Below, piece by piece: positions 53,117 to 60,853 of a DNA stretch of 64,000 bases. Positions within the stretch are counted from its first letter, which is position 1. Each line of letters starts with the position of its first letter. The translations under genes were made by a program, and so were the position numbers. The notes under the pieces were generated by a model. That model was given only the letters and a program-made list of their open reading frames with translations, did no database searches and had not been told where the DNA came from. Source of the DNA: Antilocapra americana (Eukaryota; Chordata; Mammalia; Artiodactyla; Antilocapridae); the NCBI GenBank assembly GCA_007570785.1, contig ML660211.1:6600774-6664773 (forward strand). Reading direction: 5' to 3'.

Positions 53117-53557
53117 TGCCGGAACCAGCCGGCAAAATCGCACGGTCGAGAACGCAACGACCAAGCACCTGAGAAAAATGAAGACACTCAAAAGATGGGG
53201 TTGAGAGGAGCAGAGGGAAACTCCAAAGAGCTTCTCACTACTGCCACTTTATTATAGCTGATTAACAGTATATATACATTTTTCTAGTTACTAGCAAGCT
53301 TGAGGGAGCAGTTAACGACAAACTTTAAGAATGCCTTTGATATGGTCAGTACATTATTAAGCAGGGGAAAAACAGACCCGCATACGTCAGGCGTCCAAGA
53401 AAACAGAGTAAATGGGAAAAAGGTCATCAGGCTGTTTTTCCCGTCACGGCGCTTGATCTTAGTCAATGAAAAGGCGTCAGGGTGGCGGGACAAAGAGAGG
53501 TTTTCAGGTCCTCTCTTAGGGCCGATTGGGGGATGGAAAACATCCCGGCTCCCCGCA
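53117..53557 (-). repeat. 3' LTR of the provirus (441 bp)
   Basis: In proviral sense it starts TGCGGGGAGCC and ends CCGGCA, with TG...CA ends. It contains a TATA-like TATATATA (53269-53276) and AATAAA (53248-53253, reverse complement). Compared with the 5' LTR I count six substitutions and two single-base indels. Confidence 0.96.
53248..53253 (-). terminator. Polyadenylation signal AATAAA in 3' LTR
   Basis: TTTATT on the plus strand is AATAAA in proviral sense. It lies about 15 bp after the TATA-like box, so the signal sits at the U3/R border and R must be short, an arrangement known from JSRV-type LTRs. Confidence 0.8.
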
Positions 53558-53571
53558 TCTCCCCCTTTTTT
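53558..53571 (-). other. Polypurine tract
   Basis: AAAAAAGGGGGAGA in proviral sense directly abuts the 3' LTR. This is the primer site for plus-strand DNA synthesis. It lies six bases downstream of the env stop codon. Confidence 0.93.
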
Positions 53572-53576
53572 ATTTT

Positions 53577-55121
53577 TTAATGAGACGGTTGTCTCGCCTG
53601 TATACGGGAAAACATCATGATGCGCCTATTGATAGAATCTGTAAGGCACTGACAAATACATGGTCCAAAGCAGAGCAATACAATAATACAGATTACAATA
53701 ATCAACAAAGACTTCCACCATCCTACATGAAACCAAGAAGAAATTTGCTCCCAAATCGAGAGGTCTGAATTGCCTAATGCAGCAATCTGCTTATGCATGT
53801 CTTGCAGAGCATCAGATACATTTCCAGAATAATCAGGGATATATATGCAGCACTCCCTTTTGATAAGGGCGCAGGTCCCTCCCTGAGCTGCTGTTAAAAT
53901 GTCCAAAGCCATGCGGTTTTGGAGAACGGCCTTCCTCATTAATTTCTGTTCTTCATTCAAAGAGGCCAGTGCTTTCTCGGTGTCCATCAGAGCTTGCGTG
54001 GTAAAGTTGTTCAAGGCTTCGACTCTTACCATGATGTCAGCAGTTCCTAAAGACGGCACAAACACAGCTACAAGATAATCATACCAGTGAAACACAGAAC
54101 GAGACCATCTTGCTTTAATAAAAGGCAGATTAGCAGGGACAGGGAGATCCTGGCGGTGAATTCTTCCTGGGGCAAAGACAAAACCCAACGTGCACCGCCC
54201 TACCCAACCTATGGGCAGCCAAGGCCAGAGATTATCTCCACAAATCCATTTAGTATTATTAGGGGCAACCCACCTTAGGCCAGGATTATTTTTCCAATCA
54301 GATCCAGGCCAAACAAAAGCAGATTGGGGTTTAAAAGTTACATCATAGATGATTTCACATTTCTGCGGCAGCAAATAACCAACATGTTTTAAATATTTCA
54401 AGGGTAGAGGCCTTCCTCCGAACATAGGGGTGTGAGATCTTTGCTCCCAGCAGACGGAGGCCCTTTTAACAAGTTGTCCTTTCTCCGGGGTCATCCAAAA
54501 ATATTCATCCCATATTTGATAATATTCCCCAGCAATTCTGCCAGTATTGCGGGGAGTAGACCGAGATTGATTCATATAATAAGCATATGCCTGAGTCACT
54601 TCTATCAAACTTTGGCTGACATTGAAATGAACAGTGAGGTTGGTGCCTCGGTATTGGCACCAAGGAATGTTAGAAATGTTAAGAGTGTTAAGGCTATAAT
54701 ACCCATTTTTGTAATCCTGTAAATATTGACACAAAGATGGCAACTCTTCCTTTGGCAACGGAATCACCCACCAAGGCAATCCATCAGTGGCCGATAAAGG
54801 CATGCTAGTACATACCCAGCAGGCAGACTCATTATAGAAGTCAGCATAAGAGTGGGCCCAAGAGATAAAGGTATTGGCCTCAGCGGCGGGAAACACCTGA
54901 TTAAAAATAGCACAAACCAGTGAGAAAACAATGTAAGTAAGAGCTACTCTGGGTTGTTCCGTTTCTCCTGCTATTTGCCTCGCCTGCAATATGATCTCAT
55001 GCATCTGCTGCGGCGTTGGAAATCTTCTGGTCTGCAACGACAATCGGCTCATCCGAAGGTTTAGAGACCGACGTTGCCTGGCGTACCAGCCTTTCCGGGA
55101 GCCAGCGCGGTGTTTCGGCAT
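53577..55121 (-). CDS. env: Envelope glycoprotein (SU-TM), intact, gamma-type body with long basic leader
   Basis: The precursor of a retroviral surface and transmembrane glycoprotein has 514 residues from the ATG at 55121; the frame is also open from an ATG at 55142. I chose 55121 because a strong splice acceptor (AG at 55123-55124) lies between the two ATGs. Numbered from the upstream Met, residues 8-40 are very Arg/Lys-rich, followed by a hydrophobic stretch (67-80) typical of a long leader like those of MMTV/JSRV-type Envs. SU has CWVC (108-111), about seven N-glycosylation sequons and a minimal furin-like RWSR at 345-348. TM has a hydrophobic segment after the cleavage site, a CX6CC motif (C424, C431, C432) next to an immunosuppressive-domain-like LQNRMALDIL, a membrane span (about 479-500) and a short tail. 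SU is short. The start overlaps pol by 125 bp. Confidence 0.95.
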   Translation of the reverse strand: MPKHRAGSRKGWYARQRRSLNLRMSRLSLQTRRFPTPQQMHEIILQARQIAGETEQPRVALTYIVFSLVCAIFNQVFPAAEANTFISWAHSYADFYNESACWVCTSMPLSATDGLPWWVIPLPKEELPSLCQYLQDYKNGYYSLNTLNISNIPWCQYRGTNLTVHFNVSQSLIEVTQAYAYYMNQSRSTPRNTGRIAGEYYQIWDEYFWMTPEKGQLVKRASVCWEQRSHTPMFGGRPLPLKYLKHVGYLLPQKCEIIYDVTFKPQSAFVWPGSDWKNNPGLRWVAPNNTKWICGDNLWPWLPIGWVGRCTLGFVFAPGRIHRQDLPVPANLPFIKARWSRSVFHWYDYLVAVFVPSLGTADIMVRVEALNNFTTQALMDTEKALASLNEEQKLMRKAVLQNRMALDILTAAQGGTCALIKRECCIYIPDYSGNVSDALQDMHKQIAALGNSDLSIWEQISSWFHVGWWKSLLIIVICIIVLLCFGPCICQCLTDSINRRIMMFSRIQARQPSH

Positions 55122-60544: not shown

Positions 60545-60550
60545 TTTATT
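60545..60550 (-). terminator. AATAAA in 5' LTR
   Basis: The same polyadenylation hexamer as in the 3' LTR. Because it lies upstream of the predicted transcription start, or close to it, it would mostly be absent from the 5' end of the RNA. Confidence 0.7.
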
Positions 60551-60565
60551 ATAGCTGATTAACAG

Positions 60566-60573
60566 TATATATA
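60566..60573 (-). promoter_or_regulatory. TATA-like box of the proviral promoter
   Basis: TATATATA at about 281 bp into the LTR in proviral sense. Transcription would be expected to start roughly 25-30 bp further on, near 60540. Confidence 0.75.
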
Positions 60574-60853
60574 CATTTTTCTAGTTACTAGCAAGCTTGA
60601 GGGAGCAGTTAACGATAAACTTTAAGAATGCCTTTGATATGGTCAGCACATTATTAAGCAGGGGAAAAACAGACCCGCATACGTCAGGCGTCCAAGAAAA
60701 CAGAGTAAATGGAAAAAGGTCATCAGGCTGTTTTTCCCGTCACGGCGCTTGATCTTAGTCAATGAAAAGGCGTCAGGGTGGCGGGACAAAGAGAGGTTTT
60801 CAGGTCCTCTCTTAGGGCCGATTGGGGGATGGAAAACATCCCGGCTCCCCGCA

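What the first reader, a model, noticed from the sequence alone, without database searches (positions are those of the whole stretch)
53117..60853. Complete, apparently coding-intact betaretroviral provirus
Both LTRs, primer site, leader, gag, pro, pol, env, polypurine tract and a clean 6-bp target duplication are present. All four frames are open and the catalytic residues I could check in protease, RT, RNase H, integrase and dUTPase are in place. Most endogenous retroviruses are broken, so an unbroken copy may still be expressed, supply proteins in trans or be polymorphic in the host species.
Basis: partly seen in the sequence, partly recalled or inferred. Interest (0 to 1): 0.88.

Follow-up and report, generated by a model that had tools for sequence, protein, structure and literature searches.

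The report
Old ruminant retrovirus, integrase broken
This is a structurally complete but no longer fully functional retrovirus copy in what looks like a deer-like genome, notable because it carries a placental-fusion-type envelope gene on a sheep-lung-cancer-virus type backbone.

Summary
The provirus is real and lies on the minus strand: two 441-bp LTRs, a 6-bp target duplication, a Lys3-like primer site, a polypurine tract, and gag, pro, pol and env frames open from stop to stop. Rejoined flanks align across the junction to paralogous LINE copies, so the empty site is shown. But it is not coding-intact. The first integrase catalytic residue is glycine (aspartate in 116 of 118 relatives), and gag stops 17 residues before a conserved end still readable behind it. 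The copy should be unable to integrate by itself. The LTRs differ by 6 substitutions and 2 indels (about 3 My at 2.2e-9 per site per year). Env is not of the JSRV kind: it is gamma-type, of the Syncytin-Rum1/PABLB lineage. It follows a long leader shared with deer and camel copies, on a Gag of the JSRV/deer side. That recombinant make-up is the interesting part. Env keeps all 49 columns that are at least 90% conserved among 39 relatives, so it is the product most likely still functional. Expression, fixation and sister copies could not be tested.

The parts
60413..60853 (-). 5' LTR (441 nt; TATA-like box 60566-60573, AATAAA 60545-60550)
53117..53557 (-). 3' LTR (441 nt; 6 substitutions and 2 indels against the 5' LTR)
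60854..60859 (.). target-site duplication, copy beside the 5' LTR (TATACA on the minus strand)
53111..53116 (.). target-site duplication, copy beside the 3' LTR
60392..60409 (-). primer binding site; one mismatch against the site printed for BoRV CH15 (PMC8686636; Lys3 type by recall)
58421..60265 (-). gag: p10, p24 N and C domains, two zinc knuckles, PSAP motif (late-domain role recalled); premature stop at 58421-58423
58478..58529 (-). gag/pro -1 frameshift element (slip GGGAAAC 58523-58529), Rfam RF01097
57606..58553 (-). pro frame: dUTPase 58074-58424, aspartyl protease 57750-58046 (LDTGADV), G-patch 57612-57737
57609..57615 (-). pro/pol slip heptamer AAATTTT
54997..57627 (-). pol frame: RT (YMDD), RNase H, integrase
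55675..55677 (-). integrase codon of the first catalytic residue; reads Gly where 116 of 118 relatives have Asp
53577..55142 (-). env: long leader 54876-55142 (end inferred from alignment); SU 54099-54875 with CWVC 54810-54821; RWSR cleavage site 54099-54110; TM 53580-54098 with immunosuppressive-domain-like stretch and CX6CC 53847-53873
53558..53578 (-). polypurine tract abutting the 3' LTR
52911..53116 (.). left flank, the part of the split LINE copy that takes part in the junction-spanning alignments
60854..61819 (.). right flank, continuation of the same LINE copy

Best explanation
This is an endogenous recombinant betaretrovirus that entered a ruminant germ line, probably of a deer or a near relative, a few million years ago by inserting into an old LINE. 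Its Gag belongs to the artiodactyl JSRV/ENTV/deer side of the betaretroviruses, and Pol very likely too. Its env is a gamma-type gene of the Syncytin-Rum1/PABLB lineage, behind a long, arginine-rich betaretrovirus-like leader whose start overlaps the end of pol. When active it would have worked like any betaretrovirus: Lys-primed reverse transcription, gag-pro-pol made by two -1 frameshifts, a covalently linked SU-TM fusion glycoprotein, and perhaps an RNA-regulating role for the leader (inferred from JSRV Rej). Today the copy should be unable to integrate, because its integrase lacks the first catalytic aspartate, and its Gag is 17 residues short. The products that could still work are Env and, less surely, particles made from the truncated Gag. 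Shown: anatomy, empty site, the two lesions, the placement of Gag and Env. Inferred: loss of integration, env swap inside the JSRV side, host, age. Unknown: expression.
For: LTRs, target duplication, and rejoined flanks aligning across the junction to four other LINE stretches. Pfam domains of all genes. Frameshift element. Integrase residue 651 is Gly; of the 120 best Pol relatives (of 615 hits) 118 have a residue there and 116 have Asp. D708 and E744 are kept, 57 and 36 residues further on, the DD35E spacing (spacing rule recalled). The three solved integrase chains shown (7usf, 3jca, 5cz2; MMTV by recall) have Asp there. gag: 10 of 10 relatives that I chose for alignment A3, out of 120 listed, run on to a ...PPT(Q/S)(Y/D) end, and a matching end still reads in frame behind the stop here. 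Trees: Gag with Dama, Cervus canadensis and Odocoileus copies 0.998, inside a clade with JSRV, ENTV and Muntiacus at 0.81-0.97. Env with Cervus and Dama 0.998, with hippo, Moschus and Syncytin-Rum1 0.81, adding camelids 0.99. Leader: 61 of 83 aligned positions identical to Cervus (score 303, best of 500 shuffles 49) and 40 of 88 to Camelus (199, best 44).
Against: The host is not identified: the best match to any named protein is 78% (Gag, Dama). That the leader descends from a JSRV-type Env leader was not tested, as no JSRV Env leader could be fetched. Loss of integrase activity is inferred from established knowledge of DDE integrases, not measured. This Pol differs at 4 of 182 columns conserved across the set, but 29 of 121 sequences, this one included, differ at 4 or more (median 2), so only the catalytic one is decisive. 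Two of 118 relatives also lack the Asp.
Confidence: 0.87

Rival explanations
1. It is a fully competent provirus: all genes work and it can replicate or re-infect.
For: Four open frames, both LTRs, frameshift sites, primer site and polypurine tract; RT and RNase H residues and the protease motif kept.
Against: First integrase catalytic residue is Gly; gag stop 17 residues early; about 1.4% LTR divergence.
Confidence: 0.03
2. The locus, or its env alone, is kept by host selection (a new syncytin-like gene or a restriction factor), which is why the frames are still open after some 3 My.
For: Neutral expectation from the LTR clock is 2.25 nonsense changes and 3-17 frameshifts; one nonsense and no frameshift are seen, probability 0.002-0.045 depending on the indel rate. 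Env differs at 0 of 49 columns at least 90% conserved (0.78 expected), while Pol differs at 8 of 231 (3.7 expected). A review passage proposes that new ERV Envs take over from Syncytin-Rum1 (PMC4488720).
Against: pro and pol are as free of stops and frameshifts as env. At 95% conservation the counts fit neutral decay: Pol 4 of 188 against 3.0 expected, Gag 0 of 41 against 0.65, Env 0 of 22 against 0.35; at 90% Gag has 2 of 82 against 1.3. Env expectations are too small for the zero to mean much, and at three positions where all artiodactyl relatives with a residue agree (9 of 9, 13 of 13, 10 of 10) this Env differs. The copy was picked because it is open. No expression or orthologue data.
Confidence: 0.07
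3. The sequence is an assembly composite of several family copies.
For: None found; no reads were available to test it.
Against: The target duplication is exact and the rejoined flanks are continuous with other LINE copies; no other copy of LTR or genes was found in the rest of the window.
Confidence: 0.05
4. The gamma-type env came with the same single swap that made the MPMV-like type D viruses (group VIII of Hayward et al.), not with a separate one.
For: Both have a class II backbone and gamma-type env; the best sequence matches of pro among solved chains are a dUTPase and proteases that I recall as MPMV's; Hayward et al. inferred a single event (PMC3621094, passages).
Against: Gag groups with JSRV/ENTV and deer copies (0.81-0.97). 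Pol groups apart from the SRV sequences, though deep nodes are weak. None of the 46 Env hits bears an SRV or MPMV name, though many are unnamed and the search sees only relatives sharing exact words. The leader is long, while group VIII is argued to have lost any Rev-like protein.
Confidence: 0.12

Closest known systems
JSRV/ENTV and enJSRV (ruminant betaretroviruses)
   Same: gag-pro-pol order, Gag 53-57% identical and in one clade; long Env leader (JSRV's length from a PMC9967133 passage)
   Different: JSRV-type Env is not gamma-type (PMC3621094 passage; a sheep gag-env fusion, P0123, carries PF00517); here SU/TM is TLV_coat with CWVC and CX6CC
CERV beta1 of fallow deer (PMC8877266)
   Same: deer-side betaretrovirus with dUTPase and G-patch
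   Different: Its env has a gp41-type TM (PF00517) with about ten stops, and its LTRs were not found; the present Gag is closer to another deer set (Dama 75-78%, Odocoileus 66-68%) than to the Cervus elaphus and Muntiacus Gags (51-56%) with which that paper groups CERV beta1
Syncytin-Rum1 and the PABLB/Syncytin-Car1 Env lineage
   Same: Env 52-55% identical to two named bovid Syncytin-Rum1 proteins and 42-45% to Syncytin-Car1; same SU motif, RWxR cleavage site, CX6CC
   Different: Syncytin-Rum1 is described as a captured env gene, with 26 residues before the SU motif as deposited; here env sits in a whole provirus with a leader of about 89 residues
MPMV/SRV (type D betaretroviruses with gamma-type env)
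   Same: class II gag-pol with a gamma-type env
   Different: Pol only 55-59% identical to the SRV proteins listed; Gag sits in the JSRV-side clade; no SRV-named Env among the Env hits

Membership tests
Betaretrovirus provirus (class II) | dUTPase in pro, gag and pro and pol in separate frames with two -1 frameshift sites, Lys-type primer site, 6-bp target duplication | tested here: met
   primer site with one mismatch
Betaretrovirus, JSRV side | Gag groups with JSRV/ENTV | tested here: met
   support 0.81-0.97
Betaretrovirus, JSRV side | Pol groups with JSRV/ENTV | tested here: inconclusive
   clade with unnamed P0171 and P0184 at 1.0, then unnamed P0172 at 0.69; no JSRV-named Pol in the list
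Betaretrovirus, JSRV side | beta-type Env (no CX6CC) | tested here: not met
   TLV_coat, CX6CC present
Betaretrovirus, JSRV side | long multifunctional Env leader (Rej-like) | tested here: inconclusive
   A leader of about 89 residues, shared with deer and camel copies; homology to JSRV Rej not tested, no JSRV Env leader retrieved (one search found none)
Syncytin-Rum1/PABLB gamma-type Env lineage | sequence clade | tested here: met
Syncytin (co-opted fusogenic placental Env) | placental expression, fusogenicity, purifying selection across species | not testable with these tools
   no reads, no orthologues
Coding-intact, replication-competent provirus | complete catalytic sets | tested here: not met
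   integrase residue 651 Gly
Coding-intact, replication-competent provirus | full-length gag | tested here: not met
   stop at 58421-58423, 17 residues before the conserved end
Type D group VIII (MPMV-like) | Gag and Pol in the MPMV/SRV clade | tested here: inconclusive
   Pol apart from SRV but deep nodes weak; no SRV-named Gag among the listed hits

The most novel reading that the evidence does not exclude
This provirus belongs to the retroviral lineage that donated Syncytin-Rum1. In artiodactyls a JSRV-side betaretrovirus replaced its SU/TM by a PABLB-type gamma env with a crossover inside env, downstream of the betaretroviral leader, so that the leader (Rej-like RNA regulation) was kept. 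That lineage went on infecting deer-like hosts until a few million years ago. Camelid and deer copies share leader and Env and bracket Syncytin-Rum1 in the Env tree, so by parsimony the captured gene came from the same recombinant.
Probability: 0.4. Interest if true: 0.62.

Novelty: new variant of a known kind. Interest (0 to 1): 0.42.

Why it matters
As an 'intact provirus' it loses most of its interest: the copy should be integration-dead. What remains is a little-damaged example of a recombinant betaretrovirus with a Syncytin-Rum1-type envelope. It makes testable which virus gave ruminants Syncytin-Rum1, and whether betaretroviruses swapped envelopes more than once while keeping their own regulatory leader. 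It also supplies an unbroken Env frame, probably in a host group where a review says that Syncytin-Rum1 (Cervidae, Giraffidae) did not fuse cells (PMC4488720, passages).

Tried and rejected
Viral-contig scans with Env and with Pol found no relative, nor did a leader-motif pattern. The core motif of the SPRE element of other syncytins (PMC8579622, passages) has no match within the provirus at up to 3 mismatches; the two hits in the window, at 19912 and 36689, lie far off. Pfam has no convincing family for the leader (best E 0.14). A bacterial promoter and terminator scan of the LTR says nothing for this host and is not used. The own-genome search for LTR copies did not complete, so copy number and solo LTRs are unknown. 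The two primary papers on Syncytin-Rum1 and Syncytin-Car1 are not held. APOBEC-type decay was not tested: with six LTR substitutions (four of them A/G, direction unknown) there is too little to judge. The idea that openness of the frames proves selection was rejected. Host identity beyond 'ruminant, deer-like' was not reached: the LINE frames look like BovB by recall, not by a database test. Structure prediction was not run; by its description it returns no coordinates with which to measure the triad.

Full report
What is there. The provirus lies on the minus strand at exactly 53117-60853. Its LTRs are 441 nt each, begin TG and end CA, and differ by 6 substitutions and 2 one-base indels. TATACA flanks both ends; the match is exactly 6 bases. 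When the two flanks are joined with one copy of the duplication removed, two alignments of more than 1.1 kb run across the junction to LINE copies at 24506-25619 (79%) and 50003-48855 (77%), and two shorter ones to 7122-6812 and 13227-13445. The empty site is thus read from paralogues, and the insertion landed in an old LINE. Searches of the window outside about 53001-60900 found no other LTR and no gag, pro, pol or env copy.

Genes. Stop-to-stop frames are gag 615, pro 315, pol 876 and env 526 codons. Pfam finds p10, p24 and zinc knuckles; dUTPase, protease and G-patch; RT, RT thumb, RNase H and the three integrase domains; and TLV_coat in Env. The gag/pro frameshift element matches Rfam RF01097 at 73.9 bits (cut-off 43) and the pro/pol heptamer is AAATTTT. 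dUTPase and protease align over their length to solved chains (2d4l, 3sqf) that I recall as MPMV's; the last dUTPase motif differs in part. The primer site has one mismatch against the site printed for bovine CH15 (PMC8686636, passages).

Not intact. I aligned Pol with the 120 best of 615 hits. Four of 188 columns that are at least 95% conserved differ here. One is decisive: residue 651, WQMGVTH, where 116 of the 118 relatives with a residue have Asp (one Asn, one Lys, two gaps). The three integrase chains shown from the PDB search, all of one integrase (MMTV by recall), have Asp there. The next catalytic residues, D708 and E744, follow at 57 and 36 residues, the spacing of the retroviral DD35E triad (rule and role recalled). 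RT YMDD, the RNase H acidic residues and the HHCC residues are kept. gag ends at 58421. All 10 relatives that I chose for alignment A3, out of 120 listed, go on to a conserved end, and a matching end of 17 residues is still readable in frame here behind the stop. Of all 120 listed Gag relatives 26 end in a strict form of that motif; the ends of 59 were printed, and among these the others are fragments, variants or different ends. The frameshift lies upstream of this stop, so Gag-Pro-Pol is not shortened by it.

Age. 6 of 440 sites give 3.1 My at 2.2e-9 per site per year (95% 1.1-6.8), 4.6 at 1.5e-9, 1.5 at 4.5e-9 (the rates are recalled). Under neutral decay 2.25 nonsense changes and, by the assumed indel rate, 3-17 frameshifts are expected; one and none are seen, P 0.002-0.045. 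Against reading this as selection: the copy was chosen for being open, and pro and pol are as open as env. The conserved-column clock is mixed. At 95% Pol has 4 against 3.0 expected, Gag 0 against 0.65, Env 0 against 0.35. At 90% Pol has 8 of 231 against 3.7, Gag 2 of 82 against 1.3, Env 0 of 49 against 0.8. So Pol decays at or above the neutral pace, and Env shows too few expected changes to tell. Three Env positions that agree in all artiodactyl relatives with a residue differ here.

What kind of virus. The 46 Env hits are led by a Cervus elaphus predicted Env (67%), then hippo, two bovid Syncytin-Rum1 proteins (55 and 53%), Moschus, camelids, and Syncytin-Car1 of carnivores (42-44%). Env tree, 37 of 40 sequences used (39 of the 46 hits plus ours): with Cervus and Dama 0.998; with hippo, Moschus and Syncytin-Rum1 0.81; adding camelids 0.99. 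Gag tree, 120 of 121 sequences used (the 120 best of 142 hits plus ours): with Dama, Cervus canadensis and Odocoileus 0.998, within a clade that holds JSRV, ENTV and Muntiacus and no other named mammals than artiodactyls, 0.81, or 0.97 with one unnamed protein more. Pol: with unnamed P0171 and P0184 (77%) 1.0; deeper nodes are weak. JSRV and ENTV Env fall outside the gamma-type cluster (PMC3621094 passage), a sheep gag-env fusion carries PF00517 (P0123), and so does the deer provirus CERV beta1 (PMC8877266, parts 1 and 2 of 4 read). So within one Gag clade two different Env types occur: an env swap. Hayward et al. (PMC3621094, abstract and passages) describe one such swap for the MPMV-like group and argue that it would have cost that group any Rev-like protein, since such proteins are encoded in env. 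PMC3758190 (passages) lists several gamma-env acquisitions by class II viruses. Here the leader of about 89 residues is long, like those of betaretroviruses (over 90, against about 21-64 in MLV, ALV and HTLV; PMC9967133 passage). It overlaps the pol end by 146 nt and is shared with Cervus (61 of 83 aligned positions identical), Camelus (40 of 88) and, more weakly, hippo (17 of 52). The part beyond the pol overlap scores well above 500 shuffles for Cervus (138 against 42) and Camelus (64 against 37) and is borderline for hippo (38 against 37). The leader therefore stayed while SU/TM changed, if it is of JSRV type, which I could not test. JSRV Rej, the Env leader, regulates unspliced RNA (PMC3185594, passages).

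Novelty. No title or abstract start listed in seven searches, and no passage that I read, describes a provirus with a JSRV-side backbone and a Syncytin-Rum1-type env. Most listed papers were not opened and the primary syncytin papers were not available, so this is weak evidence. The kind, a betaretrovirus with gamma-type env, is known; the combination looks new.

Verdict. A real, structurally complete, endogenous recombinant betaretrovirus, a few million years old, with integrase and gag lesions.

Noticed in passing
window 54997-55142: The end of pol and the start of the env leader overlap by 146 nt in different frames, so the leader's first 48 or so residues are dual-coding.
   Followed up: partly
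P0094: A 'gag polyprotein' filed under the nematode Onchocerca flexuosa groups at 0.998 with deer Gags (76% identical to ours over 39%); probably deer DNA in the worm assembly.
   Followed up: no
P0048: A predicted SP140-like protein of Muntiacus reevesi has a stretch 60% identical to this Env over 11% of it: possibly an env-derived exon or a gene-model error.
   Followed up: no
P0005: The Cervus elaphus Env cluster (90% identity) stands for 23 member sequences, so an open Env of this family may be multi-copy or shared by several deer.
   Followed up: no
window 24506-25619, 33244-34173, 47991-48855, 48855-50003, 60854-61819: Copies of one LINE with reverse-transcriptase-like frames, and a short interspersed repeat of about 160 bp on both strands (2607-2770, 10343-10478 and more); by recall BovB and Bov-tA types, which would fit a ruminant.
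   Followed up: partly
window 60392-60409: The primer site differs by one base from the site printed for bovine CH15; a change after insertion or another tRNA variant.
   Followed up: no
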